Of a stretch of 64,000 nt of DNA, positions 33,300 through 64,000 are shown piece after piece. The stretch comes from Hyaloperonospora brassicae. Lineage: Eukaryota; Oomycota; Peronosporomycetes; Peronosporales; Peronosporaceae. The stretch covers positions 124,001-188,000 of the forward strand of contig CANTFL010001416.1 in NCBI GenBank assembly GCA_947650285.1, read 5' to 3'. Made by a program: the position numbers and the translations under genes. The notes under the pieces are model-generated. The model saw only the letters and a list, made by a program, of their open reading frames with translations. It ran no database searches and was not told where the DNA came from. Each line of letters opens with the position of its first letter. Within the stretch, counting starts at the first letter, position 1.

Positions 33300-33316
33300 C
33301 GCAAGGATGAACGCGC

Positions 33317-33464
33317 GCGTAAGAGTTAAATTAGTGACGGGTGGGACCAGTCAAGCAAAACGTCCGATGTCCTCATCCGCAGTGTCGCGAGCGTAAGAGT
33401 CAAATTGGTGACGGGTGGGACCAGTCAAGCAAACCCTTCGATGTACTCTTCCGCACTGTCGCTG
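33317..33464. repeat. Two 74-base tandem copies at the 3' end of the SCC2 gene
   Basis: Copies 33317-33390 and 33391-33464 share GCGTAAGAGT, GTGACGGGTGGGACCAGTC and AAGCAAA blocks at the same spacing, roughly 85% identical by eye. The second holds the last 12 codons and the stop of the SCC2 gene (minus). The first carries a mutated duplicate of those codons (ending ..GRFA plus stop) and lies in the gap to the TBC1D7-like gene. Confidence 0.85.
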
Positions 33465-39875: not shown

Positions 39876-41798
39876 CGCGTGACAAGCAGCAGCAGCAGCA
39901 TGTAATGCAGTCACTGACGCACGTCTTGTCGGGTGATTGGTTGATAATTGACGCGACAGAGCAGAGCACTTCGTAGGTGCTTGGCGATGGTCATCAATAT
40001 GACTGATACTGTCTGCTGTGCGATCACTTCCCATGTAGTTCCACCATACGGAGGCACATTTGAGCTGGTGGTCTCGAATCGAGGGACCAAAACATTGACG
40101 CTGAACCGGCACGGTCTTCTTCGAGGTCTTTTGCAGCTACATTGGCGAAACCCGACGCTAGCAAAGACCAGGTCGGTGTTGAATCGGCCACATTGGCGCG
40201 CCTGGCCATCACATCGTTTACAACGTGCAACGGGTGCGAAAATGCAGATGACATCGCTCGGCCTATGGCAACCGCCATACAAGTGCCAGTGACACGCAAT
40301 CTGATCGAAGTGCCTGTGGTTCGGTGACTTTCAGGCAATGTCGCCATCAGGACCAACGAGTTGTTGCAGGTGGAAGTATCGAGCCAATACTTCTTTTGTC
40401 ATCGCAGATGCTTTCTACGCTAGACGATAGCTAGTATACATGACTGCTGTCTCGTTTTGTCTACAGTGCACGGGTGCAACATACGTATGCGACTGTTCCG
40501 TTCGTCTGTTCAGTTCGTCTTGAAAATGAACAAACTGGTCTGCACAACCTTATGATTTCGCGGATGTGTCGAGTTGTCTGTCCGGGTCAGCTTTTCTATC
40601 GAAGGGCAACTCGACCTCAGCATCGGCATTCTCTGGCACAAGTATCAACGACATTTATTCCTTTGCATCGTGACTTGGCTTACGCTAGCAGCATGTGTGC
40701 AGGCCTTCGCAGAAACCAACAATGTGACCGGAGCACCTATCAGTTCCTAGCAGTTCAGTGATCACCGTTTGCGCCGGACTATCACAGTGGTTGCATGTAT
40801 GTTGAAGCAACTCATATTGCGGTCATCTGACAGAACTACATCATATATTGATCTACGGGCGGCATGAAGCCAAGGTGGTTCGCTCAAGTAGCGTCTCTGG
40901 CTGGAAATGGTTGTCACGGCTGCACGCTTGTCGACGAAAGAGCACTTTTACGGCAATATGGTACCTTGCACCACCGTAAGTCATCGCAATGATTCGCTTT
41001 GTGGTAGCACCATTTCCTACTGTACCGCACGAGGTACCTCAACAAGCAGACGAGAAGATCGATGGTCTATTGATAAGTTGCTAGACGTATATGTGGATCG
41101 ACCTCATCTTGTTTTGATGGGCTGCAACTACACGGGAAGCTTTATCGTAGGAGGCACGTTTACAGTATCATTGGACTGCTCAAAAGCTATGGCAACACAA
41201 GCTCATCGATTGGCCACGCATGGCGCCGAGGGGCTTGTATCGTTAGCTGCAGCTACCATCCTGCTAATTCTGTGCCCACAACAGGCATGCACGCAAATAT
41301 TGTTGACGACAAACTACGGCAATTCAAGCGTACCTGACATATGACAGGTGCGCTGTACGCAAACAGCAATGTGCACGCGAGAAGTGACCGTGTCTCGTTA
41401 AAGTTGCGTGCCGGCTTGCTCTGATATGCACTGAGGGAGGGTACGATTCAGCTCCCAACATTGGTGACCGCCGTGTGCGATGAAGTGAGACCTGTTGCTG
41501 CAGGATACAGCTACATGATCAGCAACAGTGACAGAAGGAGAGACATATTGATCATGTGCCGGCTCTATTTCCTTCCATTCTGCTTCCGACTGTACATGAC
41601 ATCGGCTCGTCGAGCGAGCTTGTTGCATGAGGTCGTCACATTTGACCAAGCAGTTCCTAGTTACAGCTACTAATACCAGAAGCGATTGTAGTGCTTCGTG
41701 TGGCACTTGCTGTACTTGCGGTAAGAAGTTTATCGTGAAATGTACAGCGTTTTGGCATACTGCACTTCAACGTGTCTAACATAATACTGCTGGGTCAC
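39876..41798. other. Intergenic, no supported gene
   Basis: Open frames at plus 39988-40292 and 40907-41344 and at minus 40356-40024 lack motifs. The first hundred bases are presumably the promoter of the small membrane-protein gene. The Gypsy element starts at 41799, preceded by the target copy GTCAC (41794-41798). Confidence 0.4.
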
Positions 41799-42186
41799 TG
41801 TAACGGGGCAGCCCGTTACATGATATTGTCACTTAAGGAAAGTGACAATAAAGAATATAAGATGGATATTCTTTAAACAATATCACCAAAGTGGTGATAT
41901 TGAAGGGTCGACCAAAGGGTCTGTTCATTGGTTGATATCGTGATGATATCAACCCACCAATCGCCGCAAGACGCGCGCAATGAGTGGTGACGAGACGTCA
42001 CCATACATGCAGTTATATTAGTATAATTGAATTAAGTCAAACGAAGAGACAGTAGTTTAAAGACTTAATTTATTAATATAACAGTTCTACTTTTACCCTA
42101 CCTACGCTTCCTCGCTCGCCACGTGTACGTCCGTCGGGGCACCCAAATCCCTTGCGTTAAGTTACGCAAGGGTGTGCCCCGTTACA
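41799..42186 (+). repeat. 5' LTR of the Gypsy chromovirus
   Basis: Begins TGTAACGGGG and ends CCCCGTTACA, so the termini are inverted copies. The first 22 bases are also self-complementary (TGTAACGGG, CCCGTTACA). Internally it is a row of hairpins: ATTGTCACTT/AAGTGACAAT, TTGATATC/GATATCAA, GGTGAC/GTCACC and CCCTTGCGT/ACGCAAGGG. AT-rich TAATTGAATTAAG and TTAATTTATTAATA blocks could hold promoter elements. Confidence 0.95.
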
Positions 42187-42188
42187 CC

Positions 42189-42196
42189 TGGTAGCA
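42189..42196 (+). other. Primer-binding site TGGTAGCA
   Basis: Two bases after the 5' LTR. TGGTAGCA is complementary to the 3' end of a eukaryotic initiator tRNA-Met (..UGCUACCA). The match beyond eight bases is poor, so the primer assignment is an inference. Confidence 0.6.
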
Positions 42197-42230
42197 CTTC
42201 GTAGTCCTTCCAAGGACCACATCATCCAAC

Positions 42231-43385
42231 ATGAACATGTTGGATGAAGAAGACACCTTTCACGCCACGCGTGAAGGGTTTACCCATTTGAGTGACATCG
42301 AATGGGGTGTGGTAGAACGAATGAGTTCTACCGTAGGCGAACTCGTCGTTAGCACCATGTTGGAGTCTCTAGACAGAGACCAACAACATTCTGCTATCGC
42401 CAAGTTCATTCAGAATGAACTTGCTCTCGAGAGGGAGAAAGTAGCCTTGCTTCACCAGCAAGGCTCTCAACAGGCCGAGCAGTTGAGAGAACTCGGTGCT
42501 CAACAGACGGAGCTGTTGAGACAGCAGCAATTCCATGCTGCTGTGGGCGGGACGGCGCATGCGCGTCGTCCCGAAGTGATGAAAGTCGACATCTCCAAGT
42601 ACAGTGGAGTCCCGGAGGACTCCCTGTTACTATGGTTTGTCGAACTCGACAGAGCCCTAAGGGCTCGTCGCGTCGAAGATGAGCAAATGAAACTCACATT
42701 TGCTCAGACCCACTTGCCAGGGCGTGCCAAAACTTGGTCCCTGGGACTCGAGAGTAGCGACCCAAATGTGTTTAGGTCGCTAGATGACTTCAAGTCCCGG
42801 CTCAGACAAACGTTTGAGCCGCCACGTGCTGAGTTCAGGGCTCGTTCAGAGCTCCTGAAACTCAAGCAGGGTAAGCGTGATGTGCACGCTTACGCACAAC
42901 ATATACGACTCCTTGCGAGTAGTATAACTGCAAACCCAGTTCATGAACACACGTTGATTACGGTGTTCATGCAAGGGCTCGCAGAAGGGCCCGTCAGGAG
43001 CCACCTGTTCCGCCTTGAGCTGAATACGCTTGAAGAAGCGATATCAGCCGCGGAACAGGAAGACTTTAGCATGAGACAGGCTCATGCTAGCTCAAACTCT
43101 TACCGTCCACCGAGACGACAAGAGATCGGAGGTCCAGAACCAATGGACCTCTGTTATGTTGAGAGCGAGAGACCTCGCTCTACAAGCAACAAGCGATTGC
43201 AGAGGTGCAATCGCTGTCAGAAGTTAGGGCACTACGCATACGAGTGTAGTGCTCCGCGCCCAGTACCAAACAGTACTGAGCGAAATGGACGACCATTCGC
43301 CAGAAAGGGCAATGGGCGTGGGTCCAGCGCTATTGCGAAGCCGCAACAGCGAGACGGGCCATCAAAAAATGGTCGGGGTCAGTAG
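42231..43385 (+). CDS. gag: Gag of the Gypsy chromovirus
   Basis: 384 residues, structural protein that packages element RNA. The N-terminal 110 residues are acidic then Gln-rich and helical (LEREKVALLHQQ.., a likely coiled coil). The capsid-like retrotransposon gag domain is about 118-285 (WFVELDRALRARR, TWSLGLESSDP, VHAYAQHIRLLAS). A CCHC knuckle, CNRCQKLGHYAYEC, lies near residues 325-338, followed by a basic tail. The ATG at 42231 lies inside a 12-base-arm hairpin (42222-42247). The stop codon lies in the frameshift stem-loop. Confidence 0.93.
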   Translation: MNMLDEEDTFHATREGFTHLSDIEWGVVERMSSTVGELVVSTMLESLDRDQQHSAIAKFIQNELALEREKVALLHQQGSQQAEQLRELGAQQTELLRQQQFHAAVGGTAHARRPEVMKVDISKYSGVPEDSLLLWFVELDRALRARRVEDEQMKLTFAQTHLPGRAKTWSLGLESSDPNVFRSLDDFKSRLRQTFEPPRAEFRARSELLKLKQGKRDVHAYAQHIRLLASSITANPVHEHTLITVFMQGLAEGPVRSHLFRLELNTLEEAISAAEQEDFSMRQAHASSNSYRPPRRQEIGGPEPMDLCYVESERPRSTSNKRLQRCNRCQKLGHYAYECSAPRPVPNSTERNGRPFARKGNGRGSSAIAKPQQRDGPSKNGRGQ

Positions 43386-43404
43386 GGGCGGAGCGCCCTA
43401 CTGA
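43364..43404 (+). promoter_or_regulatory. Predicted -1 ribosomal frameshift site between gag and pol
   Basis: The heptamer A-AAA-AAT occupies 43364-43370 in the gag frame, 12 bases before the gag stop. An eight-base spacer is followed by a stem-loop: TCAGTAGGGGCG (43379-43390, one bulged G), loop GAG, CGCCCTACTGA (43394-43404). The protease frame is the -1 frame and is open across the gag stop. Slippery site, spacer and stem match canonical -1 frameshift signals of retroelements. Confidence 0.75.
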
Positions 43405-46400
43405 TCCAGCAACCTCAAGAGAATTTGCAAACCTCTTGACGAAAGTTGCTCCAGATACACAATCATTGTGTGTCTCTGCACCTGGTGATGACGTTTCGCT
43501 CATCACCTTGAAGTTGGAAGCGACAAATGACTTGTCGCTTCGTGCCCTAGTAGACTGTGGGGCGTCGAACAACTTTGTTCGTCGCCAGTCACTAGAGGGT
43601 CGTAGGCTCAAGTTCGTTGAGCGCGACATTCCCCCTCACAAGGATGACGGTGCGCCTTGCAACAGGCGCATCGATAACCGTTGAGAAACGTGTAGTAGGA
43701 ATCCACTACACGTTAGAGGGCGAGCAGTACGATGATGATTTCATCGTACTAGATCTGGATGACAAATTTGATGTCATCCTGGGATTACCTTGGCTCAGAA
43801 AATACGAGCCAAGGGTGAGCTGGCAGCATCGATCCGTGAAGATGCCTGCTGCTTGTTCATCAGATGGCCATCTGATGAACATCTTGGAGCGTCCACAAGC
43901 GTGTGGATGTTCTGCGAGTGAGTGCGATGGCCTCACTTGCGGTACGGTCGTTAGCACGACTGCACAAGGTCACAGTGTAGTTGATCACTACACTGTGGAG
44001 CAAGCTCCCGGCGGCTGTACAGAAGTACAGGCTGCGCCGAAGGTCCACCACTCGAATAAGTCGAGTGGACCGGGACATGGATGCATGCCTAGCGGGCAGC
44101 ATCTTAGAAGAAAGAAATCTGTTGCCCCCAAGGGGCAACATGAAAATCCTAGGTCGACTGGAGAGTCGACCGTAGAGGATCGGTTCCTGACTGTGGTCGC
44201 ACAGCCACAGTCGGAAGACGTCGAGGGAATAAGTCCCCACGTACTTGAGGAAGGAGTTCCTCAAGAGTTGCTTGCTGAGGGATCAGGCCCTCAGCAACCT
44301 GTGGAAGCAAGATCCCAGGAAGAAACCGAGACGTTGAACGTCTTGGTTAATGACGGATCAAGCGTAGGCGCTTATACGCTTGATCTGATTGTGCCTCCGA
44401 AGTTGACTTCGGAGATAACTCAGTTGCCAACGCTAGAACCGAAACGGTTCTTGCGTGATCTGCGTAGTGGCAAAGTCAAGCAGATCTGCGTACTCGTCAC
44501 AGAGGACGAGTATGTGACCGACATTCGGTCGGCAACAGTATTTGCTGAGAACGAACGGGTTCTCAGCAGCTCATCGATGGACGAAAGTGTCCTCGATGAG
44601 AAGACTCGGATTGAGCGATACGCGTCCCAATCCTGGGAGTCACTTCAGGCAAATCCTTTGTATAAGGATTTGATCGAATTCAGGGATGTGTTCCCTGAAT
44701 CCGTACCTTGCGAGTTGCCTAAGGACAAAGGCACTCGACACGAGATCGAGCTCAAACCGGGCTCGAAATACTGTGTCATGAAGCAGTGGCCACTGCCTCG
44801 TGAACAAGTGATAGCGATCGACAAGTTCTTTGCCGATCGCTTAGCAGCGGGCCATGTGAGGGAATCAACATCCCCTTACAGCTCTCCGACCTTCTGTGTG
44901 CGAAAGGCCACAGGAGGGTGGCGGATAGTGCACGCATTCAACAAGTTGAATGCTGCAACGGTACCGGCTCAGACGCCGATACCGAGGAAGGACGTAATCA
45001 TAGATGGTATGTCAAAGAGTACCATCTTTTCGTCCATGGATCTGATGGATGGATTCTATCAGATCCTGATGCGTGAACGGGACGTCCCGTTCACAGCAGT
45101 GAGTACCCCCAGCGGGATGCTGTGGGAGTGGCTAGTGATGCCACAGGGGCTGAGTAATGCCCCTGCAACATTCAACAGATGTGTAACAAATCTGTTGAGA
45201 CCGGTGCGAGACTTCGCACCGAGTTACTTCGACGATGTGTTCGTCCATAGCCGGGCTATGGACGGGAAGACGGACGTTGAAGTTCACAGAACTCACGTTC
45301 GTCAGGTTCTTCAACTTATGCGCAAGCATAAGTTGTACGCCAACCTCAAGAAGTGTATATTCGCGGCTAGCGAGATACCACTTCTTGGGTGCATCGTGGG
45401 GAAACACGGCGTACGCCCTGATCCCGAAAAGATCAAGGCGATCACCGACTGGCCAGTGCCAGTCGATGTCAAGGGACTTCGAAAGTTCCTTGGTCTTGCG
45501 GCGTACTTGCACAAGTACTCGCGCAACTACGCCGAGATGACGGTACATCTTTCTTGCTTGCTCAAGAAAAATGTCAAGTGGTCATGGAACGCTGAGTGCC
45601 AGCGTTCCTTTGAAGGTATCAAGCAAAGCTTGATGCAATCGCCGATCTTGGCGATTGCAGATCAGGACAGACCATTTCATGTGGTCTGTGACGCCAGTGA
45701 TTTCGCAATCGGCTGTGCGTTAATGCAGTTCGATGCAGATGGCGCGGAGCGCGTCATCTGTTATCAATCGCGTCAGCTGCAAGCAGCTGAGCGTAATTAC
45801 CCAGTGCATGACAAGGAACTCCTTGCCATGAAATACGCACTGGCTAAATTTCGCGTCTATCTCTTGGGAGATAGACCGTTTGTAGTCTACACGGACCATG
45901 CGTCATTACGCACGGCCGTAAACAGCCCACACCTCTCGCAAAGAATGGCGAGGTGGCTGTCTTTCTTCGCGGAGTATAACTTCTCCGTGGAGTATAAACC
46001 GGGACGACTCAATGTCGTCGCGGATGCTCTTTCGCGCCGGCCCGATTTCGAGCCGGACGCGCAATCCAACAGTGAGGACAAGCCCACTGTTGCGACACTG
46101 TCAGTCAGTGTCCCGTCGTCAAGTTTACTTGACGACGTACGAAAGGCATACGCGGAAGATAAGGATCTTCTGCGATTGATGGATCATCTGGTGAATCCAT
46201 CCAGTAAATCCATGAGGGATTTACCGGCTTTGTACCGATCCTCATCGGATCGGTATAGTACACGCAACGGATTGCTGTACTATACTGCTGTTGCCGACGA
46301 CACGCCTCGTGTCGTCGTACCCGCTCATCATGATTTGCGATTGCGCATCATGTATGAGTGTCACGATGCCCCAACAAGCGGCCATCGTGGTAGAGAAAAG

Positions 46401-48280
46401 ACTTACCTCACGGTAAGTCGCGACTTTTACTGGCCCCGCCAGTATCAGTTTGTTCGCAAGTACATCCGTGCTTGCGAAGTATGTCAACGGGTGAAGCCTA
46501 GTCCTTCATCCCGTGCGCCATTGCAGCCTCTGCCTGTTCCGACAGAGTGCTGGCAGTCCGTTTCAATGGACTTCGTCTTCGGGTTTCCCGAAGACGCTCA
46601 CAAGAATAATGGTATTCTTGTGTTTGTGGACCGATTCAGCAAGATGGTCCATCTTGCTGCTGTCCCTGAGTCAATCAAGGCTCAAGGTTGTGCTCGTGTC
46701 TTTCTAGACACGGTCTTTAGACTCCACGGGTTACCCCGTGAACTCGTATCCGACCGTGACCCTCGGTTCACGGCGGAATTTTGGCAAACCGTGTTCCGTA
46801 CTCTCGGAACACGATTGAAGATGTCCACTTCTGACCATCCAGAAACAGATGGTCAGACGGAACGTGCGAACCGTGTCCTCGAAGAGATTCTTCGAGGATA
46901 TGTCCACTCGTTTCCGAGTTGGAGCGAATTCCTACCCATGGTGGAATTCGCCATCAATAATTCGGTGCATGCTTCAACACAGCACACACCGTTTTACGTG
47001 AATGGCCTACGCCATCCACGTGTGCCCACCCTTCTAGAGTGTGACTCTTGGATAAGGGGGGAGGGACTCGCTCGAGCAAAAACCGTTTTGGCTCTTGCTC
47101 ATCACGTGTCGACGCAAACGTCGTCACGTATGATGCCGATGTCGATCAAGTCGACATCGATGAAGAAGATCATCTCAATAATAGCGAAGACGCTATTATT
47201 GATTCGGATGATGATGACGATGCTGGTATATTCAGCATCGTCAACGATTATGCCAGCGAGGAAGAAGACAACCTCGCTGAAGAAGAGAGCAATCTCTTAG
47301 CAGTGCGCACGAAGCGCACTGCTAGACAAAACAAAGAGTCAGCAGAGAACTTCCTGCTGACTCGAGAAGCGGTAGTCCGTTTCGTTCAGGACTCCATCGC
47401 AAATGCGGTGGACCGTCAGAAACGGAACGCAGACAAGAATGGAAGAGCAAATGTTCTTTCATTTAAGGTTAATGACCTAGTACTACTGTCAACGGTAAAC
47501 CTACCTGGACATGCAGTCACTAGTGTCGGCAGTAGTAAACTACTGCCGAAATACATTGGGCCATTTCGAGTGTTGCATCGCAAGGGCAATGCATACACAC
47601 TCGAATTGCCACGTAGGATGCGCACGCATCCTACGTTTTACGTGGGGAGGCTTAGGTCGTACTGTCAGTACGAGCCTTCTTCTTCCGATGAAGATAGCCC
47701 CCACGTTCAAGAACATCCATCAAGTTCTTGCGTTCGCGCTCCAGACGATCCATCTGGTCGCGCAGATATGATACCTCGGTATTCAACCGAGTTATCTCTC
47801 CGCGAGCTGTCGCCAGCTCGCCGAAAAGGGAGCGGACATCCCGCTCGACCTGAAGCTGCGCCGTGGCATAATCGGCGCGATCCCTCGCCCGATCAGCCTC
47901 GTGATCCTTGCGGTTCTTCCGCACGGTGTCGGTCAAAGCGTAGCGTCGGTCGCGCTCGTGCTTCAAGTCATCGCGCAATTCATCGATTGCGCGATCCATC
48001 TCGTAAGGGTCGAGATGGTGGGCCTGGGGTTCTGGAGGAGTTCTTTCCTCCTCCACCACATCCTTTGGTGGATGCTCACGGTGATCAACGCTTTCTAGTG
48101 GAGCGTATCTTGAATCACCGTGACGATTCAGGATCAAGGACGAGCTACCTCGTCCAGTGGCGGGGGTATCCACCCTCTTGGAACAGCTGGGAGCCCCGCT
48201 CTCAGCTGTTGATGGATGTTGAAGGTCTCGTCCGCCAGTATGACGAGACCCATCCGATGAGTCCTGTGGCCCATCGGTAA
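43376..48280 (+). CDS. pol: Pol of the Gypsy chromovirus, two homopolymer frame breaks
   Basis: Protease [10 protein letters not shown] (Asp at 43553); RT with [11 protein letters not shown], the YFDD box at 45225-45236; RNase H with CDASDFAIG and YTDHASL; integrase with the HHCC zinc region 46326-46500 and D, D, E near 46568, 46753 and 46862 ([24 protein letters not shown]). Next comes an acidic insert ([14 protein letters not shown]), a [12 protein letters not shown] tail and a chromodomain at about 48081-48250 ([27 protein letters not shown]). Frames run -1 of gag, then shift at a C5 run near 43631-43635, then back at a G6 run near 47055-47061. One C fewer and one G more would restore one frame; the sister copy indeed has G7. 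Enzymatic motifs look intact. Confidence 0.92.
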
Positions 48281-49256
48281 ACACGCGCCCTAGGCGCTTG
48301 TAGACGGATTGCAAGTTTGCAATCGCGTCACGCATCTCCTCCGAGAGATGTGCCCTTCCCCAGGGCGAATTTAGGGAGTACACATCCCTATGTGCACGCT
48401 GCGAGTTGTCAACACAACTCGCACAAGGGTCTCCCCATGTGAGGCAAGGAATGCCTGCCTCACTCGATAAACAATGCAACCGGTACCTAGCACCGGTTGG
48501 CGTTCGCCGTTCGAACCTGAGGCGTGTTGCCTCAAGTTTCTTGAGCCACCCTTCTCGTCCAAAATTCTTTACGTTTTGGACGAACGCGTTCCACGCAGCC
48601 AAAAGCGATGTTTTGTCACGCTTTTGGTTGCTATTGTACCATCGATGTCTAAGGAAGACATCGAGATAAAAGTCTTCTTCAGCGCGAAAGTTCTTCGCGC
48701 TGGGACTCAAGCCGTGAAGCTCGGTTGCATCGAATAAGGGTATTCGATGGTGTTGGCCTGTCTCGTGAGACAGGCTATTGATGAGCCGTTCGGGCAAACG
48801 CCACGGCTTCAGCTCATCACGCTTCACAGTGGTACCTTTGTTGGTACCACGGCTGTCAGTATGACGATGGGTTGCACCATCGTCAAGTCGCTCGTGCGAA
48901 GGAGCACGAGCTGATTGCGGTGATGAGCAAACATACTCATCATCAGATTCGTCATCACTGCCGAACAGACTGTGATGCGAATCACGAGTCCGTTCGTTCG
49001 GCAGTGGCCTTGGCGAATACTGAGGCGTCGCCGGTGAGCGAGACGCCTCTGGAGCATTGCCCGAGTCAGACACGTCTGACTCGCCAGAGTAGATGACCTC
49101 CACATCGGGGTCATCGTACGCACGCGGCGTGATACCGCGTGCACCTGCAGCACCTGTTGCTGCAGGCGAAGAAGGGGCGACAGACGACGAAGCGTCTGCC
49201 GCAGAGGCTTGCACAGCACCAGGCTGTGTGGGTCTTGAGTCACCTCGCATAGACAT
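47652..49256 (-). CDS. Antisense ORF of the chromovirus, coiled-coil protein of unknown function
   Basis: 534 residues from ATG 49256, which is 130 bases inside the 3' LTR, so an antisense promoter in that LTR could drive it. Residues 1-147 are Ser/Ala/Pro-rich then acidic. 148-330 form the ordered core ([54 protein letters not shown]) with Cys 262, 271, 278 and 281 ([12 protein letters not shown]). 418-515 is a strongly charged coiled coil, and the end (HRKKKARTD) looks like a nuclear signal. It overlaps pol by 629 bases opposite the chromodomain and its linker. The sister copy keeps the same protein in pieces with mostly conservative replacements. Function unknown; a chance ORF of this length and conservation is unlikely. 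Confidence 0.75.
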
Positions 49257-49374
49257 GTTAGCTATGCGAGGTCAAGCGGAAAGTGAGTGGAACGGACCAA
49301 ACAAGTACTCCCTGTCCCAATGGTGGCCAACGGGTGGCCTCCATATTTCGATAGTCACACGGTGACTATCAGTT

Positions 49375-49382
49375 AAGGGGGG
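49375..49382 (+). other. Polypurine tract AAGGGGGG
   Basis: Purine run three bases before the 3' LTR, the expected plus-strand primer. It follows a GATAGTCA/TGACTATC hairpin (about 49350-49370). The sister copy has AAGGGAGGGG in the same place. Confidence 0.8.
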
Positions 49383-49385
49383 TGA

Positions 49386-49775
49386 TGTAACGGGGCAGCC
49401 CGTTACATAATATTGTCACTTAAGGAAAGTGACAATAAAGAATATAAAGATGGATATTCTTTAAACAATATCACCGAAGCGGTGATATTGAAGGGTCGAC
49501 CAGAAGGGTCTGTTCATTGGTTGATATCGTGATGATATCAACCCACCAATCGCCGCAAGACGCGCGCAATGAGTGGTGACGAGACGTCACCATACATGCA
49601 GTTATATTAGTATAATTGAATTAAGTCAAACGAAGAGACAGTAGTTTAAAGACTTAATTTATTAATATAACAGTTCTACTTTTACCCTACCTACGCTTCC
49701 TCGCTCGCCACGTGTACGTCCGTCGGGGCACCCAAATCCCTTGCGTTAAGTTACGCAAGGGTGTGCCCCGTTACA
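49386..49775 (+). repeat. 3' LTR of the Gypsy chromovirus
   Basis: Nearly identical to 41799-42186. The differences I see include ATAATATT for ATGATATT, one extra A in AATATAAAGATGG, CCGAAGCGG for CCAAAGTGG, and a small change at GACCAGAAGG. The third keeps the hairpin pairing by changing both arms. Followed by GTCAC and a C-rich run (49780-49797). Confidence 0.95.
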
Positions 49776-49930
49776 GTCACCCCCCCCTCCCCCCCCGATT
49801 AAAACAGGCGGAATTTGGGATGCACCAAGTAATTACGGGAAAAAGTCTGTTCATGAGATAAAAATCAAGCGAAAAGGCACTACGAGATGAAAAAATAAAG
49901 AAGGCATTGCAAGATTTACTCGGTAAAAAT
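49776..49930. other. Short spacer between the two Gypsy elements
   Basis: C-rich (two runs of seven to eight C) then A-rich, 155 bases, without similarity to either element that I can see. It is what remains of the site between the intact copy and the broken 5' edge of the second copy. Confidence 0.5.
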
Positions 49931-49938
49931 ACGTAATC

Positions 49939-52900
49939 ATAGATGGTACGTCAAAGAGTACCATCTTTTCGTCCATGGATCTGATGGACGGATTTTGTCA
50001 GATCCTCATGCGTGAACGGGATGTTACGTACACGGCAGTGAGCACCCCCAGCGGTATGTTGTGGGAGTGGCTAGTGATGCCACAGGGGCTGAGTAATGCC
50101 CCTGCAACATTCAATAAATGTGTTACAAATCTGTTGAGACCGGTGCGGGATTTCGCACCGAGTTATTTCGATGATGTGTTCGTCCATAGCCGGGCTATGG
50201 ACGGAAGGAGGGACGTTGAAGTCCACCGAACTCACGTCCGTAAGGTTCTTCAACTTATGCGCAAGCATAATCTGTATGCCAACCTCAAGAAGTGTATATT
50301 TGCGGCAAGCGAAATACCACTTCTTGGGTGCATCGTCGGCAAACTCGGCGTACGCCCTAATCCCAAAAAGATCAAGGCGATCACCGACTGGCCAGTTCCA
50401 GTCGATGTCAAGGGACTTCGTAAGCTCCTTGACTTAGCGGCGTACTTACTCAAGTGCTCGCGCAATTACGCCGAGATGACTGTTCATCTTTCTTGCTTGC
50501 TCAAGAAATATGTGAAGTGGTCATGGAGCGCTGACTGCCAGCGCTCATTTGAACGTACAAAGAAATGCTTGATGCAATCGCCCATCTTGGCGAATGCCGA
50601 CCAGGACAGACCGTTTCACGTGGTCTGTGACGCCAGCGATTTTGCTATCGGCTGTGCGTTGATGCAATACAACACAGACGGCGCAGAGCGCGTCGTCTGT
50701 TATCAATCGCGTCAGCTGCAACCAGCTGAACGCAATTACCCAGTGCATGACAAGGAACTACTTGCCATGAAGTATGCACTGGCTAAGTTCCACGTCTATC
50801 TCCTCCGATATAGACCGTTTGTTGTCTATACGGTCCATGCGTCACTACGCACGGCTGTAAACAGTCCACACCTCTCGCAAAGGATGGCGAGGTGGCTGTC
50901 TTTCTTCGCGGAGTATAACTTCTCCGTGGAGTACAAGCCAGGACGACTCAATGTCGTCACTGATGCGTTATCACGTCGGCCCGACTTCGAGCCAACGTCC
51001 CGAGTCAACAGTGAGGCCTTGCCCACTAATGCGACACTGTCCATCAGTGTGCCGTCGTCGCCTTTACTCGACGACGTGCGGAAAGCATACGCAGGAGACA
51101 CGAATCTCCTCCGTTTGATGGGTCATCTTGCGATCTCATCCCGGAAATCCTAGTCGGATTTGCCGGCTCTGTACCGTTCCTCTTTGGATCGGTACACGAC
51201 TCGCAATGGCCTGCTGTACTATACAGCAGTTGCCGACGACACGCCTCGTGTCGTCGTTCCCGATCATGATGACTTGCGATTACGCATCATGTTCGAATGT
51301 CACGATGCGCCGTCTGGCGGGCACCGTGGAAGAGAAAAGAATTACCTCACGGTCAGTCGTGACTTTTACTGGACCCTCCAGTATCAGTTTGTCCGCAAGT
51401 ACATTCGTTCTTGCGAAGTCTGTCAACGAGTTAAGCCTAGCCCTTCATCCCGTGCGCCACTACAACCTCTGCCGGTCCCATCAGAGTGTTGGGAGTCCGT
51501 TTCCAAGGACTTTGTCTTCGGGTTCCCCGAAGACTCTTATAAGAATAATGGTATTTTTGTGTTTGTGTATCGATTCAGCAAGATGATGCATCTTGCTGCA
51601 GTCTCTGAATCGATCACTGCACACGGCTGTGCGCGTGTCTTCATCGACACAGTGTTTCGACTTCACGGATTACCCCGTGAACTCGTGCCCGACCGTGACC
51701 CTCGCTTCACGGCGAAGTTTTGGCAATCCGTGTTCCATTCACTCGGAACACGACTAAAGATGTTCACATCTGACCATCCCTAAACAGATGGTCAGGCGGA
51801 ACGTGCAAATCGTGTCCTCGAAGAGAATTCTTCAAATATACGTCCACCCCTTTTCGAGTTGGAGTGAGTTCTTGCCGATGGTCGAATTTGCCATCAACAA
51901 TTCGGTGCATGCTTCAACACAGCACACACCGTTTTACGTGAATGGCCTACGCCATCCACGTGTGCCCACCCTTCTAGAGTGTGACTCTTGGATAAGGGGG
52001 GGAGGGACTCGCTCGAGCAAAAACCGTTTTGGCTCTTGCTCATCACGTGTCGACGCAAACGTCGTCACGTATGATGCCGATGTCGATCAAGTCGACATCG
52101 ATGAAGAAGATCATCTCAATAATAGCGAAGACGCTATTATTGATTCGGATGATGATGACGATGCTGGTATATTCAGCATCGTCAACGATTATGCCAGCGA
52201 GGAAGAAGACAACCTCGCTATAGAAGATAATAACCTCTCAGCAGTGCGCACGAAGCGCACTGAAATACAAAACAACGAGTCAGCAAAGAACTTCCTGCTG
52301 ACTCGAGAGGCGGTAGTCCGTTTCGTTCAGGACTCCATCGCAAATGCGGTGGACCGCCAGAAACGGAACGCAGACAAGAATGGAAGAGCAAATTTTATTT
52401 CATTTATAGTTAATGACCTAGTACTACTGTCTACGGTAAACTTACCTGGACATGCAGCCACTAGTGTCGGCAGTAGTAAACCACTGCCGAAATACGTTGG
52501 GCCATTTCGAGTGTTGCATTGCAAGGGCAATGCATACTCGATCGAATTGCCACGTAGGATGCGCACGCATCCTTCGTTTTATGTTGGTCGTCTCCGCCCG
52601 TACCATCAGTACGAGGCCTCTTGCGAGAACGGAGATAACCGGCGCGCTCAAGAATCCCCAACTGATTCTTGTGATCACGGACCAAACACTGAAGTTGTTC
52701 CTTCGTCGAAAGGGGTTGTTCCTTCGTCGAAAGGAGTTGGTCCTTCGTCGATGCGGCCTCGCGACTAGCCGTCTTTAGCTCGTCGCACAAACGACGCCTC
52801 TCGCGTTCACTCTCAAGCTGAGAGAACGCAAATTCCGATCGGTCCTTCTCCCGATCGGCATGAAGACGTCGCACGTCCGACTGCAAGGCGTGCCGTCGGT

Positions 52901-53158
52901 TGTATTCATGCTCGACGTCCGCCCTCAACTCGGTCAGGTAACGCCAATGGTTACCTAAAGTCTCCTGCAGGCCCGGCGGTTGAGCCGGATCTTGTCCATC
53001 GACCGCCACCGAAACCACTGGTAGATTCCCACGGTGGTCAGCGCTTTCTTGTGGAGCGTATATTGAACCACCGTGGCGGTTCAGAATCAAGGACGAGTTA
53101 CCTCGTCCGGTGGCGTGGGTACCCACCTTCCTTTGACAGCTGGAAACCTCGTTCTTAG
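49939..53158 (+). pseudogene. Decayed pol of the second Gypsy copy
   Basis: RT from the MDLMDGF segment with YFDD retained, then RNase H (YTDHASL has become YTVHASL, losing the second-sphere Asp). An in-frame TAG at 51151-51153 breaks the frame after the RNase H/linker region. The integrase resumes in the same frame and ends at TAA 51781 in place of PETDGQTE. A further frame (51788-52768) carries the acidic insert and ends at a stop before the chromodomain, whose remains ([18 protein letters not shown]) lie at about 53040-53140. Confidence 0.9.
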
Positions 53159-54202
53159 CTGATGGCTGACGTTGAAGGTATCGTTTACCTTATGACGAGG
53201 CTCATCCGATTGGTCTCAGGGTCCATCAGTAAACACGCGCTTTAGGCGCTTGTAGACAGATTCCAAGTTTTCAATCGCGTCCCGCATCTCATGCGAGATG
53301 TGAGCCCTTCCCCAGGGCGAACTTAGGGAATTCACGTCCCTATGTGCACGTTGCGAGTTGTCGGCACAGCTCGCACAAGGATCACCCCAAGTGAGGCATG
53401 GAATGCCGGCCTCGCTTGACAAACAATGCAAACGTTACGTTGCACCGGTTGTCGTTCGCTTTTCAAACTTGATGCGTATCGCCTCAAGCTTCTTAAGCCA
53501 CCCTTCTCGTCCAAAATTCTTGACATTTTGGACGAAGGCGTTCCACGCTGCCAAAAGCGAGTTCTTGTCACGCTTTTGGTTGCCTTTGTACCATCGATGC
53601 CTAAAGAAGGCATCAATATAAAAGTCTTCTTCAGCGCGAAAGTTTCTCGCGCTGGGACTTAAGCCATGAAGCTCAGTTGCATCGAATAAAGGAATTCGAT
53701 GGTGCTGGCTTGTCTCGTGAGACAGGATATCGATGAAGTGGTCGGGCAAGCGCCACGGATTGAGTTCACCACGCTTCAATGTGTTATCTGTTTCGGTACC
53801 AAGGCTTTTAGAATGACGACGGCTCTCGCCATCGTCATCACGCTCTTGCCGGAAAGCACGATTTGATGCTGGTGAGGCATAGTATTCCTCACCATAGAAC
53901 TCATCATCACTGCCGAGCACACTATGTTGCATTTCACGAGTCCGCTCGTTCGACAGTGCTCTTGACGAACGATGAAGTACAGACGGTGATCAGGATGCCT
54001 CTGGAACGTTGCGCGAGTCAGGCACGTCTGACTCGCCAGAGTTGATGACCTTATTGTCAAGGTCATCATGTGCACGTGGTGCGATACCGCGTGCGTCTGC
54101 AGCACCTTCTGCTGCATAAGGAGAATAAGCAGCAGACGAAGAATTTTCTGCTGCAGAGGAGGGCACAGCAGCAGGCTGTGTGGTCTTCGAATCACCTCGC
54201 AT
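52461..54202 (-). pseudogene. Decayed antisense ORF of the second Gypsy copy
   Basis: Counterpart of the 534-residue antisense protein in four pieces: 54202-53990 (MRGDSKTTQPAAVPSS.., ending in a stop), 53932-53435 (WRLPDHFIDILSHET.., EEDFYIDAFFRHRWY), 53431-53216 ([18 protein letters not shown]) and 53126-52461 (coiled coil with a triplicated STKEQ-type unit near 52680-52750). Replacements are mainly K/R, L/I, V/A, L/F and N/K. The four Cys of the core are kept. Confidence 0.8.
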
Positions 54203-54341
54203 GAACATGTTAACTATGCGAGGCAGGGTCAGGAGTGAATGGTTCTGACCAAGCAAGTGCTCCCTATCTCACTGGTGTCCAACGGGTGGCCACCAAGTTT
54301 TCGATATTTTACACAGTAACTATCAGATAAGGGAGGGGTGA

Positions 54342-54778
54342 TGTAACGGGGTAGCCCGTTACATGAAATTGTCATTGAAACAATTTGACAATAAAGAATA
54401 TTACGTCGAATATTCTTTTAACAATATTACAGACATGGTGATATTGTTGAGATGACCGAAGGGTCTACTCATTGGCTGTATCGTGATGATATCAACCCAC
54501 CAATCGCTGCTAGACGCGCACAATGGGTGTTGAGTAGACGTCATCATACATTTATTTATATTGGTATAATTAAGTCAGGACAACAGAGATTCAAGAAGTT
54601 ATAGGACTTAATTTTATTAATACAGTTTTACTTTTACCAGAGACTAGCCTGACTACTTAGTCTCCTTTACTTCCTCTGTGTTCCTTCAACACCTATCAGG
54701 GCACTGTCTACCACTGTTGTCAGTGGAAGTATACTCCGCACTGGTCAACCAGTACGTAGTCAACAGTGCCCCGTTACA
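54342..54778 (+). repeat. 3' LTR of the second Gypsy copy
   Basis: 437 bases, TGTAACGGGG to CCCCGTTACA, with an AAGGGAGGGG tract just upstream. It is about 48 bases longer than the LTRs of the intact element and closer to the LTR remnants at 1-322 and 642-1082, so it marks a related subfamily. Confidence 0.93.
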
Positions 54779-56150
54779 CCCCCTTTTACTTTTATTAACT
54801 ACCGGCGGTTCGGAAGCCGTCTATGAGTCGAGTTTGTCGGTTTAACATTCAAGGAAACGGGATCGAGGACACAACTAACAAACATGGCTAACGGGATCAA
54901 GGAAATGTGAACAGACATCAGGAGAGATGGAGGTTGGTAGGATAGCTGTTCGCCATATGTAGAGACTAAGTCGCTAGGACCAATACGTGCAGCGAAGAAA
55001 GGAAGGAATCTTATACCAGAAGCCAATTCTAGTAATCCAATATATTGTATGTCGTAAGAACACATCTGGTGTTACATTGTGGAGCAAGGACATAGAACTG
55101 GCTCAACATAGCTAAGGGAAAGAGATTGAAACAGAATCACGAGCCCAAGCCTATGAGAGGCTTTTGCAAAAGGTACTTGATAAAACACACTTGTCGATGA
55201 GTTTGGGCTAGCTGAGGTACGATGTAAATCAAAGTGGAGATCAACAAGTACGGACGACCCTATCGGATGGTGTGATCAATGTGGGTCTACCACAAGGCAA
55301 TAATGAGACTCGAGTCTGATAAAATGTTGTGTTAAAAGGTGCCAGAGGCGACAAGACGCTTGTCGCAAACTCTGGCGCAAATGAGCGGAAAGTATATCAC
55401 GAAGATCAAGTACAATTAAAGCAGATTAATTAGCCTTACTCGCGATTGATCTAGGTCGGCGTGAACTGTCACATGCGACTGACACAGAGATATAGAAGGA
55501 CCCGAAAACTTCTATGATGATACAAAATGATTGCTGATACACGCAAGAGTGAAGAAAGTATTCTCTACAACAGAAGAAATAATATGATGTGCAAACCAAA
55601 CTAAAACGTTGCGCAGCAAATGGAAATATGTTCATGATCAATAATTAACTATCTGCGCTCAGCGCTGACGTCCGCGAGTTAGGTCTTACGCAAATTCTGA
55701 TATAGTAATTTTCATCTGATGCATGTTTGACCGTCCACGAGGCATGGTAAAGAGTGGGGATTTAAATGTGTGTGTGTATCCGATAAGCTAAATGGCCAGA
55801 TTTTGCGGAGCTTTACCAATTGTGACATTGAGACAAGTGGGTATGATGCTTTCGAAAACATGCGACGGCATAGAGGAAATCCATCAGTAAACTTTTATAG
55901 GATCAATGATCTAAATGCAAGCAAAAGCTGAAAAAGCAATCGTCAGATACAAATGCCAAGTTGGCAACACCGAGCTCCAAGATGGACAAGTAGCAAGGAA
56001 GCTGTTTATTTATCATCAGCCTAAGAATATAATGATCAATGGTCCTATGTCGAAGGACCTCAGAACCTCGTACAGCATGTTCACAATTCTTCTGCATTCT
56101 ATAGATGCTTCGCATACGGCGACATACTCCGTATAGGCAACTGAGTGCGC
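54779..56150. other. AT-rich intergenic, no supported gene
   Basis: Short frames only, on both strands. Nothing recognised. Confidence 0.4.
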
Positions 56151-58250
56151 GATCATCGATTATCTTTTCGCGGCCCATGCAATCGCGCCACGATTAATCG
56201 TCAATATTAATCCAGTCATACTTTCCATGTGTAGGATTAGGTCCTCAATCTTCATCGCAGTGCCCGTATACGATGAAGTTATCATTATTCGATGTTGCTC
56301 TGGCACAAATAGTGCTTATAGTGTGGGCAGTAGCCATGTATCACATGTCTATCTTAACAGCGCCACAGTGTTTACGTAAAAAAACTCACAAATCGACTCA
56401 AACATACGATAGAAAGGATATTTCGGGTAATGTGCTTACAGCAAGGTACATCGATCCTCCGATCGCCTGCCAATACTCAAATGTTGTTTTATGTCCGTCC
56501 AAGTCCTCGATAAACTTGCTATATTAGACATGTGGTCCATTGGAGTTGCACTGGCATGCGACGCACCGAAGTCAAACCTATCCAAGAGTTCGTTAAAATA
56601 TTTTGACTGACGAATTAGTATTTTTGGCCATTCTGATCACCTCGAATATTTAAGCCGCAATTTCAATTGACCCCCGTATTTAAATCCATATTTTCATCGA
56701 TGGCAATACAAATTATGATTTGACCTTCACTGAGTTCGTCACAAGAACTTTATCGTCCACAAAGAGTATAAGAAGATTCACCACTCCAATTTTTTGTGTA
56801 GGCTTACAAGCACGGCCCAGGTCACTGCTGGTAGAGATGGTGTCATGGAAGCTGTGACTGACTATGACAAACAGCAAAATCAATGACAGCATCTCTGATT
56901 GTTGCATTTGCGTGGTAGACAGATAGCCAAAATGAAATTTTGCGAGCATCAGACTGGCAAAACGACATGCGCTGTTAATTGAATTCGTTATCTCGACGCC
57001 GTTTCGTTTCTTGGGCATCCTCTTGTTCAGCTTCGAGCGGAGGCCGGTTTGTTTCAATTATAATATCAGGTAGTATGTATTCAATTGTCGTGACGGTCTT
57101 ATCCACGTGTATCGGTCGCACACCTATGATTCCCGTATGTAATTCGGTACAGTGATGCTTGATCTCGAAGATTGCTGTAATCTTAATTTTAAACCAATAA
57201 GTCGTCTGTTTGATACAAATCAATATGTGTAGAATTATCGTTGGCCATCATTTGTGTTAAGTTCTGTTGACATTTTCTGATGACCCTCGTCAACCCTTCA
57301 AATTGATTATAGGAGGCAAGCCGTCGCCATCATCGACATCAATATGTGAGCTAGATTTTTTAATGAGCTCTTTCACCAAAGTTAAGGTGCGATCTATTTG
57401 GTGAAGCAGGTAGTCAATTAGATTTCTTGCGTTCTATACCACTTATTTAATCTCCATCCACAAATTCACGACCATCATCTGTGATCACTTCTTTAAAATC
57501 TTATTACGAAATTGGCTCTCCAATCAGGTGATATACCATCTCAGTGCTTCATGCATGCTGTAAAAAAGAAACCTGACCTTCATCGGATCAGAAACTTCGT
57601 GATAATTGCTTAAATGTTTCAAGCAAAGAACCCTGCCATTCAGGAGCTGCATAATAATTTCCGGATCGGAATCCTGATTGAATATTTGGTCGGTTAAGCG
57701 GGGCACAATGTTATTTTCCCACATAACATGTCGTCAAGCATGTACTGAATGCGAATATCAATGAATATATGAAGTATAAGTTGATGGATACAACAATGTC
57801 TACAACACATTGAGCTCGAAGTGGTCATCATTTAATCACAAGACTAACAACGATTCAAAAGATTGAGATAGAGATAGATAACGTGACAATAGTGAAGATG
57901 ACTCGATGGAGTAGGACGCAGACAAAGTCGCTGAGTCAGAGCCAGAATTTGGTATGTTTGGAGTTGAATAATCTGCGAGCACAGACTATATTTGGTGGAA
58001 AGGGACAATACTTCTGATGACGATGGACTGTATGGTATGCCAATTACATCACATGACACTTCAATTGGTCGAACTGACATATCCGAATGTTTGTGATAAA
58101 AATCATGCGTTGATCTCTTCGTTCCATTCAATTTAAATGGCTGAGGTCCATATAGAGCTCGATCGACACGGCATATTTGTCCTTTAGGCTTTGGGATACC
58201 GGGAATAGTTCGAACGTACTGCTTGGTCTGCAATCTAGCTAACAGATAGA
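56150..58250 (-). mobile_element. Heavily eroded Copia coding remnants, minus strand
   Basis: Pieces in Copia style: QICRVDRALYGPQ (RT, near 58180-58140), VSDPMKVRFLFYSMHEALRWY (integrase C-terminal FLGY-type block, near 57590-57530), LILFVDDKVLV (RT active site, near 56770-56740) and IGGSMYLAVSTLPEISF (segment between RT and RNase H, near 56465-56420). The first piece is out of order relative to the integrase piece, so at least two elements or a rearrangement are present. Stops are frequent. Confidence 0.55.
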
Positions 58251-60384: not shown

Positions 60385-60690
60385 ATTGTAGTGCAGAAGA
60401 TGTAGGGAGTAAACGTGAATTGCATAAGTGTTAACTAGTCTTAGTTCTTCAACCCGTATGCCCCTTGCCAGCACTGCATCTTGACCAGGTCAAGTTACAC
60501 TTGGTGTTCTTCCAGCGTAACCATCCTTATGAGCTGGTCCCATATGTCGTCCGTAAGTCACCTCACCCATCATTACCTCTAGATTATCCGTCCTGACGAT
60601 TTCCTATCTTTCCATATGTCATCTTGCCACATCTCGTTCTCCCTGTCAACCGTTAGCCAATCAGGCTACGTCGCAACTTACCTGTAACAC
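60385..60690 (-). repeat. Worn LTR related to the Copia LTRs at 1559 and 6423
   Basis: Same succession of blocks: GATGTAGGGAGTAAACGTGA (compare GATGTAGGAAGTAAAAGTGA near 6452), a GTGTTAACTAG step, a TTGACC..GTCAAGT step, TGGTGTTC, repeated TCCCATATG/TCGTCC units and GCCAATCAGG near the end. Divergence is large. As a 5' LTR on the minus strand it could belong to the Copia remnants at 56-58 kb. Confidence 0.5.
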
Positions 60691-63276: not shown

Positions 63277-64000
63277 GTATAATATTAAAATAAATTAATG
63301 ACGACATGCGCGGTTGTGTATATATAAACCCGATTTGCGTGCATATGGTCATTCTGTATACTGTAAAACCTGTTTTATAATTCACTAAAGGTTTCTTCAT
63401 TACACCACTCTAAAGTAGGTCAATATTGAAGGGAGTCTTATTTAGGAATATGAATAGGGAAAAGAACAAACAGAAAATTTGAGAAAAAGATAGAGATTGG
63501 ACTTGGGATTAAATTACCAAAAAAATTGGAATAAGATTGAGCGAAGAATTCGTGATTAGACGGCTCCAACACAAAACTCGTGCTTGAATTGTTCATTCTG
63601 CAAAACAATCTTCTTGTAGTGATAAAACCGGCGGGTCTCGTCTCATGCCCCCGCGCTAGTTCGTGGCCCCTGGCGCAGTAAGTCCCTGTGCCATTTAAAA
63701 GGTGGGTAGTCCCGGCTGTGCGCATCCTGCGAGCAATATGCAGAAGCAAACTAATTGCCTCTCTATAAGGTATGTTTTTACCAACAATACGTGTATTCAG
63801 CACCTTACTCACTGTATTCATCAGTGTTTTCAAAGCAACAAGACCGCAATCAAGCCGAAGTGACTTGAATATGATATGGTACGTTCGACGCAAGTTCACG
63901 CTGGTTACCATCTCTCACGTTGCACTTCGCAGTTATGCGCTCCTAAGGAATCACAATTGTAGGGCTGAAGCGTTTGAGAAGTCAAGCTTGTACTCGTCGT
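63277..64000. other. Window end, one unassigned open frame
   Basis: A minus frame of 157 codons (63911-63438) has a plausible first half (KSLRLDCGLVALKTLMNTV, YREAISLLLHIARR) and an AT-driven second half rich in Phe, Ser and Asn. No family is recognised. It may be a fragment of a gene or transposon continuing outside the window. Confidence 0.3.

What the first reader, a model, noticed from the sequence alone, without database searches (positions are those of the whole stretch)
41799..49775. The whole chromovirus is tiled with short perfect inverted repeats
Seen directly: in gag alone, 42204-42706, I count about 16 hairpin-forming inverted repeats, e.g. arms TCATCCAACATG (42222/42236), GGTAGAAC (42311/42325), AGTTCATT (42403/42414), AGCCTTGC (42443/42458), TGAGCAAAT (42680/42698). 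In pol: an 11+11 palindrome at 45073-45094, CAACAGAT (45173/45190), CAACTTATGC (45312/45326), TCCTCGAAGA (46876/46889), ACGTAGGATGC (47611/47626). LTRs and the antisense region show the same. With equal base frequencies, arms of 8 or more with loops up to 15 should occur about 0.1 times per 500 bases; I find about eight. I did not see the pattern in the GH81, SCC2 or kinase genes or in the Copia relic. Inference: either selection on RNA/DNA structure (packaging, dsRNA, silencing evasion) or a generating process such as hairpin template switching during reverse transcription. I know of no description of this, but cannot search.
Basis: partly seen in the sequence, partly recalled or inferred. 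Interest (0 to 1): 0.9.

Follow-up and report, generated by a model that had tools for sequence, protein, structure and literature searches.

The report
Retrotransposon tiled with short perfect hairpins
A mobile genetic element in a cabbage-family downy mildew is written, from end to end and inside its genes, as a chain of short perfect hairpins, and two related element families carry hairpins of other sizes, which looks like an extreme and so far unexplained form of genome-wide folding.

Summary
The LTR retrotransposon at 41799-49775 (host Hyaloperonospora brassicae by a 100% GH81 match) carries 15-22 hairpins per kb in LTRs, gag, pol and an antisense gene; the window outside it and a neighbouring relic has 1.3-1.5. 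Synonymous shuffles destroy the pattern (pol 59 versus 4.5). Folding-energy excess over shuffles is 37-47%, four other ORFs about 0-2%; the highest vertebrate RNA virus value I saw reported is 23.4%. Stems show no preference for G-U over A-C, and both strands fold alike. Two sister families in the genome have their own hairpin size (mean span 23 here, 21 in B, 14.5 in C); 34 other RT loci sampled lack this family's long hairpins. Positions are not shared between A and B. Inherited third-position changes avoid stems, private ones in old copies do not, and a few pairs changed on both sides and stayed complementary. Best reading: dense self-pairing kept by selection, like genome-scale ordered RNA structure, perhaps shielding strands from complementary RNA. 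Main rival: hairpin-templated correction by the element's reverse transcriptase. Function is untested.

The parts
41799..42186 (+). 5' LTR (388 bases), starts TGTAAC; six hairpins with arms of 8-11
49386..49775 (+). 3' LTR, 385 of 388 aligned bases identical to the 5' LTR plus two one-base indels, ends GTTACA; six hairpins
41794..41798 (.). target-site duplication GTCAC, left copy
49776..49780 (.). target-site duplication GTCAC, right copy
42231..43385 (+). gag ORF (Retrotrans_gag, Ty3_capsid); 22 hairpins, 19.0 per kb
43617..47040 (+). pol (protease part, RT, RNase H, integrase); 69 hairpins, 20.2 per kb; 59 maximal perfect stems vs 4.5 in synonymous shuffles
47041..48280 (+). end of pol with Tf2-1-like SH3 and chromodomain (in ORF 47048-48280); 10 + 11 hairpins
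47652..49256 (-). antisense ORF of 534 aa, no Pfam match, 11 relatives at 32-83% identity, two named from Peronospora matthiolae; 22 hairpins (22.5 per kb) in 48281-49256 and 11 in 47652-48280, where both strands are open frames
43854..43881 (.). longest arm in the element: 14+14 perfect palindrome
42222..42247 (.). 12+2+12 hairpin across the start of the gag ORF
45073..45094 (.). 11+11 palindrome in the RT coding region
49900..55000 (+). decayed copy of the same family (87% identical to the element over 1,173 bases), 62 hairpins, 12.2 per kb

Best explanation
The element and its relatives are under selection to keep their nucleic acid locally self-paired along the whole length, paid for with third codon positions and some amino acids. 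Shown: the hairpins, their non-randomness, their family-specific size, their reduced inherited variation, and a few pairs that changed together. Inferred: this is selection on folding of the element's single strands of either polarity (sense RNA, antisense RNA or cDNA), because G-U is no better tolerated than A-C and both strands fold equally well. Speculative: the benefit is that a strand already folded into short hairpins every 30-40 bases, each too short to make a long duplex, is a poor partner for antisense transcripts and small RNAs, so that an element which also carries an antisense gene avoids double-stranded RNA and silencing; tighter packing into particles is the next candidate.
For: Synonymous-shuffle excess in gag, pol and antisense gene and none in six other ORFs of the window. 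Folding-energy excess over five codon shuffles each (350-base windows) 46.7 (gag), 44.4 and 44.0 (pol), 37.3% (antisense gene) on the coding strand and 42.8, 42.5, 48.2 and 34.4% on the other; four other ORFs -0.1 to 2.2%. Excess only for loops up to about 13 and none beyond 30. Inner pairs that a hairpin cannot form (loop below 3) are only slightly above 25%: in A 25 of 81 (arm >=5, p=0.14), 21 of 55 (arm >=6, p=0.02); in C 39 of 122 (p=0.05); in B not above, so the geometry is close to that of real hairpins. Arm length levels off: the stopping rate (0.75 by chance) is 0.24 and 0.19 at 6 and 7 bp, 0.69 and 0.82 at 10 and 11 bp in A, and 0.83 and 0.94 at 5 and 6 bp in C; the six LTR arms (8-11) are no longer than coding ones although no protein limits them. 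GC-poor stems are longer in A (rho -0.23, n=164) and C (rho -0.36, n=96), as for a stability set-point. Third-position changes shared by four or more of 39 copies: 28 at 242 stem sites vs 100 at 366 other sites; private changes 103 vs 140; Fisher p=9e-5. Fixed differences from 27 other copies: 20 of 476 stem sites vs 66 of 711 others; 4 pairs changed on both sides, all 4 Watson-Crick in both states, against 0-3 both-changed and 0-1 complementary when partners are slid by 1-8 bases; permutation p=0.005. Versus the 92% identical copy L067 (one of those 27), 5 stem pairs changed on both sides and stayed paired, 14 changed on one side. Family C stems also vary less: 20 of 774 third positions changed vs 109 of 1859 in spacers, summed over five copies, one of which (L105) shows no difference. 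Codon phases that would need first-second pairing are rarer (pol 29/10/30, p=0.004).
Against: No function was tested. G-U stems are not favoured over A-C stems (12 vs 10 interior mismatches in gag-pol; 50 vs 57 one-sided changes summed over 16 related copies), so sense RNA folding alone is not the target. In family B the GC-arm relation is reversed (rho +0.51, n=52). On alignment A1 the count of pairs changed on both sides (11) is not above the slid versions (8-18), though the covariation score is reached by only 3 of 500 shuffles. L056 versus the element shows no compensated pair among 37 changed ones, and double changes in family B are hardly above their slid controls. Private variants of young copies are also depleted in stems, which selection explains less easily. 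Work on maize (PMC10760457, passages) argues that RNA structure attracts small RNAs, the opposite of shielding; inverted repeats are strong small-RNA sources in Phytophthora (PMC3804510, passages).
Confidence: 0.5

Rival explanations
1. Hairpin drive by reverse transcription: the element's own reverse transcriptase (or plus-strand synthesis) uses one arm of an imperfect hairpin as template for the other, so imperfect hairpins are turned into perfect Watson-Crick ones; protein selection then keeps only tolerable changes. The hairpin size reflects each family's enzyme.
For: G-U and A-C are equally rare in stems. Hairpin size differs between families that share one host. Private variants of 21 young copies are depleted in stems (18 of 82, where stems hold 36.6% of sites; all variants 23 of 113, p=0.0003) and pair-making changes are 13 of 113 against 5.5% of random changes, 11 of 111 without two where the window copy is the odd one. 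Stem codons have lower amino-acid identity to three relatives than codons outside stems (0.51-0.56 vs 0.62-0.68; lower than 96-100% of rotations). Double changes are also expected.
Against: Arms stop at 8-11 in the LTR, where no protein limits growth. GC-poor stems are longer in A and C, though not in B. Most inherited stem changes stay unpaired or wobble: of 43 stem events shared by four or more copies, 10 lie in compensated pairs, 11 give G-U, 7 A-C and 15 another mismatch. One search for papers joining retrotransposon, quasipalindrome and template switch found none.
Confidence: 0.25
2. A protein-binding or packaging gauge: Gag or nucleocapsid of each family binds or packs hairpins of a fixed size along the whole RNA, and selection keeps that size.
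For: Family-specific span (A mean 22.9, B 21.0, C 14.5) and regular spacing (A centre spacing mostly 24-44; CV 0.48 in pol vs 0.92 in shuffles, part of which follows from higher density). Arm and loop are anti-correlated so that span is tighter than independence gives in A and B.
Against: The pattern runs through both strands equally and through the antisense gene. In family C span is not tighter than independence. No binding data.
Confidence: 0.13
3. DNA-level structure: the perfect inverted repeats matter as cruciforms or as hairpins of single-stranded cDNA, not in RNA.
For: No wobble preference and equal strands.
Against: Six other ORFs and 30 other RT loci of the same genome lack the long hairpins, so no genome-wide DNA process is at work. 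Loops are A-rich on the sense strand of gag-pol (0.332 vs 0.254 in spacers); in the antisense part A and T of loops are about equal, a weak hint of sense RNA.
Confidence: 0.08
4. Chance, base composition or low complexity.
For: None.
Against: Ten dinucleotide shuffles of the whole element give 28 hairpins on average against 182; codon shuffles as above; direct repeats not enriched; related family C has a different size.
Confidence: 0.01

Closest known systems
[quoted passage not shown] coronaviruses, HCV (PMC7642675, abstract and passages)
   Same: Consecutive stem-loops through coding sequence, folding energy below shuffled controls, positions not shared between relatives, shared variants depleted at paired sites while single ones are not.
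   Different: Here an LTR retrotransposon; excess 37-47% versus 15% in SARS-CoV-2 and 23.4% as the highest there reported for vertebrate RNA viruses (shuffling methods not matched); both strands alike; near-perfect arms without wobble preference; hairpin size specific to the family.
Palindromic structures in the LTRs of maize Sireviruses (Bousios et al. 2016, known to me from passages of PMC10760457)
   Same: Hairpin-forming palindromes in an LTR retrotransposon.
   Different: There a recurrent motif in the LTR cis-region; here the hairpins listed differ in sequence (60 listed) and run through all genes.
Quasipalindrome correction and hairpin template switching in DNA replication (recalled, from no call)
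   Same: Turns imperfect hairpins into perfect Watson-Crick ones and makes paired double changes.
   Different: As I recall, local events in replication; not known to me to cover a whole element. One search found no paper.

Membership tests
Chromovirus (Ty3/Gypsy LTR retrotransposon) | gag with Ty3-type capsid; RT, RNase H and integrase; chromodomain after integrase | tested here: met
   PF03732, PF19259, PF00078, PF17917, PF17921, PF00665, PF00385
Chromovirus (Ty3/Gypsy LTR retrotransposon) | Two LTRs and a short target-site duplication | tested here: met
   385 of 388 aligned LTR bases identical, GTCAC on both sides
Genome-scale ordered RNA structure | Folding energy below sequence-order controls throughout the genome | tested here: met
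   37-47% in gag, two pol parts and antisense gene, four other ORFs -0.1 to 2.2%; LTR by dinucleotide shuffle
Genome-scale ordered RNA structure | Pairing positions poorly conserved between related genomes | tested here: met
   4 of 55 and 4 of 54 hairpin centres shared with L053 and L052 against 4.3 and 2.7 in rotations; A against C not testable, sizes differ
Genome-scale ordered RNA structure | Shared variants rarer at paired sites | tested here: met
   28 at 242 stem vs 100 at 366 other third positions, private 103 vs 140
Genome-scale ordered RNA structure | Genome is that of a positive-strand RNA virus, the setting in which it is described | tested here: not met
   LTR retrotransposon of an oomycete
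Genome-scale ordered RNA structure | Structure present in the RNA by chemical probing | not testable with these tools
   no probing data
Sirevirus-type LTR palindromes | A recurrent palindromic motif clustered in the LTR | tested here: not met
   Listed hairpins differ in sequence, direct repeats are not enriched and all genes are covered
Known structured RNA family (Rfam) | Match at gathering score | tested here: not met
   0 matches in 41700-55000

The most novel reading that the evidence does not exclude
Each chromovirus family of this clade writes its whole sequence, coding and non-coding, as a chain of hairpins of a family-specific size (mean span about 14.5, 21 or 23 bases), set either by selection against a family-specific partner or by its own reverse transcriptase acting as a hairpin-copying machine. 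This would be a new layer of genome organisation in retroelements that overrides synonymous codon choice.
Probability: 0.45. Interest if true: 0.92.

Novelty: new variant of a known kind. Interest (0 to 1): 0.85.

Why it matters
It is the strongest sequence-order folding signal that I measured here or saw in the passages I read, in an abundant and recently active retrotransposon, with sister families that differ in hairpin size inside one genome. That makes two open questions testable by comparison: whether retroelements use RNA structure against silencing, and whether reverse transcription itself can drive hairpins into a genome. It also bears on dating and aligning such copies, since third positions are far from neutral.

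Tried and rejected
Chance and composition: rejected. Palindromes read through their centre (dimer or duplex sites): mostly rejected, inner pairs impossible in a hairpin are at most slightly above 25%. A single conserved functional structure: rejected for A against B, positions not shared, and no Rfam match. Sense-RNA-only structure: not supported, no wobble preference. Directional gain of pairing in the window's lineage: unclear. Putting the relic state into the element one site at a time was worse in 17, better in 5 and neutral in 64 of 86; the reverse in seven of the 27 relic backgrounds was better in 5-10 and worse in 2-12 cases each. Same length as the 25-nucleotide transposon small RNAs of Phytophthora (PMC3804510, abstract and passages): fits family A only. 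Relatives in viral contigs: none by the patterns used. Papers: ten searches; among the papers listed (lists were cut at 20 of 32 and 10 of 27) none is, by title and start of abstract, a description of hairpin tiling of a retrotransposon. I saw passages of PMC7642675, PMC10760457, PMC3804510 and PMC10456066 and read no paper whole.

Rows dropped and limits: the shuffle test of 47055-47651 was in a wrong frame (5 stops; 8 vs 1.3) and is not used. L001 is the window itself and was left out of the young-copy set (L002-L020, L059, L060: 21 copies), which holds top-scoring, hence most similar, copies. L054 had no match to pol and serves only as a hairpin-free RT locus. For family-C-sized hairpins only seven other loci were tested (L021, L024, L030, L035, L051, L058, L107). 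Copies L091-L107 are 17 of the 150 scored places, picked by me for range of score. Comparisons among copies are not independent, and share many copies. For L057 and other whole loci the third-position count also covers bases outside the pol frame.
Full report
What is there. The stretch 41799-49775 is one LTR retrotransposon: LTRs identical at 385 of 388 aligned bases with two one-base indels, a GTCAC duplication on both sides, gag with a Ty3-type capsid, RT, RNase H, integrase and a chromodomain, plus an antisense ORF of 534 aa (47652-49256, minus strand) without Pfam match but with 11 relatives at 32-83% identity, two of them named from Peronospora matthiolae. The GH81 gene in the window is 100% identical over 95% of its length to a protein of Hyaloperonospora brassicae. 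The family is abundant: the 40 of 2,310 candidates scored by DNA and the 114 of 5,962 scored by protein were all 99-100% identical, so these counts are lower bounds.

The observation. All cited arms are in place. Counting perfect inverted repeats (arm >=7, loop <=20) gives 13-20 per kb from 42 to 50 kb, 9-13 in the relic at 50-55 kb and 0-5 per kb in 1-41000 and 55001-64000, while direct repeats of the same arm are not enriched. With one mismatch allowed, densities are 15.4 per kb in each LTR, 19.0 in gag, 20.2 in pol, 22.5 in the antisense-only part, 17.5 where both strands are open frames (11 hairpins, shuffles 0.7), 12.2 in the relic, 1.5 in 1-41500 and 1.3 in 55001-64000. In 100 shuffles that keep protein, codons and dinucleotides, gag 19 vs 2.0, pol 59 vs 4.5, antisense 19 vs 1.95, two relic ORFs 13 vs 1.1 and 10 vs 1.0, six other long ORFs 0-4 vs 1.5-2.5. 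At a lower threshold 182 hairpins hold 39.7% of all bases in stems; ten dinucleotide shuffles give 28 and 4.6%.

Geometry. Excess exists for loops of about 1 to 13; loops of 40-399 show 146 against 160 scaled from 1-41000. Arm lengths peak at 8 (7: 31, 8: 36, 9: 30, 10: 20, 11: 11, 12: 3, 14: 1) instead of falling steadily as outside the element. Spans cluster at 20-29 with a mode at 23-24 and centres are mostly 24-44 bases apart. Pairs that would need a loop below 3 are at most slightly above the 25% expectation. So these are hairpins, not through-centre palindromes.

Folding. In 350-base windows the excess over five codon shuffles is 46.7% (gag), 44.4 and 44.0% (pol), 37.3% (antisense gene), and 34.4-48.2% on the opposite strands; four other ORFs lie between -0.1 and 2.2%. 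For comparison, PMC7642675 (passages) gives 15% for SARS-CoV-2, 7.5-10.7% for HCV and 23.4% as the highest among vertebrate RNA viruses; I did not match its shuffling method.

Relatives in the same genome. Thirty RVT_1 loci without a match to this pol (L021-L050) have 0-1.06 stems of arm >=8 per kb against 13.1-14.2 in 20 loci of this family. Distant RT loci L051, L058 and L107 (25-29% identical in pol) are at shuffle level for short hairpins too, as are four of the thirty, L021 (32 vs 24), L024, L030 and L035. Three families lie at 55-60% pol identity from each other: A (this one), B (L053, L072, L108, with L052, L071, L073, L074 as a sparser branch) and C (L055, L057, L103-L106). At arm >=7, B has 3.0-9.5 per kb and C 0-2.0, where shuffles give 0.5-1.7. 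But C has 71 hairpins of mostly 5-6 bp in 2,649 bases of pol against 15.8 in dinucleotide shuffles, with a span mode of 13-14; stems of arm >=5 with span 10-18 number 79 vs 22.4 (range 12-34) in 60 codon shuffles, and at span 20-39 26 vs 38.3 (range 25-53), a weak shortage. Folding excess is 12-17% in L053, 7-8% in L052 and 13-17% in L055. So each family has its own hairpin size; mean span 22.9 (A), 21.0 (B), 14.5 (C). A and B are close, C stands apart.

Conservation. Hairpin centres of A coincide with those of L053 and L052 no more than rotations give (4 of 55 vs 4.3; 4 of 54 vs 2.7), though L053 and L052 share 6 of 25 (rotations 1.2, maximum 5). Within A, in 39 copies, third-position changes shared by four or more copies number 28 at 242 stem sites, 21 at 70 loop sites and 79 at 296 spacer sites; private changes 103, 27 and 113 (Fisher p=9e-5). 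A set of 27 old copies, mostly contained in the first, agrees (26, 21, 71 shared against 88, 20, 88 private; p=4e-5). Over 16 pairwise comparisons third positions differ at 96 of 2,240 stem and 460 of 4,201 spacer sites; in five C copies at 20 of 774 and 109 of 1,859 (my sums). These copies are related, so the counts are not independent.

Double changes. Between the element and 27 other copies 86 sites of a 1.19 kb piece are fixed differences (same other base in at least 60%); 4 of 238 stem pairs changed on both sides, all four complementary before and after, while slides of 1-8 bases give 0-3 both-changed and 0-1 complementary; a local permutation gives p=0.005. Against L067, 5 pairs changed on both sides and stayed paired, 14 on one side; with stems that have no mismatch at all it is 3 and 8. 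Against this stand, where pairs changed on both sides (11) are within the slid range (8-18) although cells changed on both sides (22) and the covariation score are reached by only 4 and 3 of 500 shuffles; L056, with none among 37 changed pairs; and family B, where double changes hardly exceed slid controls.

Which strand. Interior mismatches in gag-pol stems: G-U 12, A-C 10. One-sided changes summed over 16 copies: G-U 50, A-C 57, other 76 (my sums). Energies of the two strands are alike. A sense-RNA structure would tolerate G-U; this does not favour it. Loops of gag-pol are A-rich on the sense strand (0.332 vs 0.254 in spacers), those of the antisense part are not clearly so on either strand, the only strand-specific hint.

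Cost to the protein. Pairing of third with third codon position, which forces first with second, is rare (pol 29/10/30, gag 8/6/8, antisense 10/5/7, the middle number being that phase). Codons wholly in stems have lower amino-acid identity to L052, L053 and L055 than codons outside stems, by 0.089, 0.164 and 0.075, lower than 96.5, 100 and 96% of rotations. So pairing has been bought mostly with synonymous choice and partly with amino acids, or hairpins sit in freer places.

Reading. The data fit a property that is kept during replication, not made by the host after insertion, since private changes of old copies ignore the stems. Selection on folding of both strands and hairpin-templated correction during reverse transcription both predict Watson-Crick stems, double changes and depleted stem variation. 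I prefer selection because arms stop growing at a family-specific length even in the LTR, because GC-poor stems are longer in A and C (but shorter in B), and because most inherited stem changes remain uncorrected (33 of 43 events shared by four or more copies). The copying rival gains from the depletion of stem changes even among private variants of young copies (18 of 82) and a small excess of pair-making changes (13 of 113 vs 5.5%). What the folding does is not shown. Shielding from complementary strands is my first guess because the element has its own antisense gene and Phytophthora is proposed to silence transposons with 25-nucleotide small RNAs (PMC3804510, abstract and passages); the opposite, that structure feeds silencing, is argued for maize elements (PMC10760457, passages).

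Noticed in passing
49900-55000: A decayed copy of the same family just downstream, beyond a C-rich run at 49780-49796; it keeps 12.2 hairpins per kb and pieces of an antisense ORF.
   Followed up: partly
47652-49256, minus strand: Conserved antisense ORF (534 aa) without Pfam match; of 11 relatives two are named (Peronospora matthiolae), nine are unnamed ENA records. It overlaps the chromodomain ORF on the other strand, and hairpins continue through the doubly open stretch.
   Followed up: partly
   Followed up: yes
about 43.65 kb and 47.05 kb: Judged from where ORFs end, the pol frame of this copy seems interrupted at two places; other copies have open frames of up to 1,666 codons over the RT. 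Not tested.
   Followed up: no
33312-33462: Two copies of a 74-base tandem repeat, 88% matches.
   Followed up: no
52693-52751: A 21-base tandem repeat, 2.8 copies, inside the decayed copy.
   Followed up: no
L053: In family B longer stems are GC-richer (rho +0.51, n=52), the reverse of families A and C.
   Followed up: no
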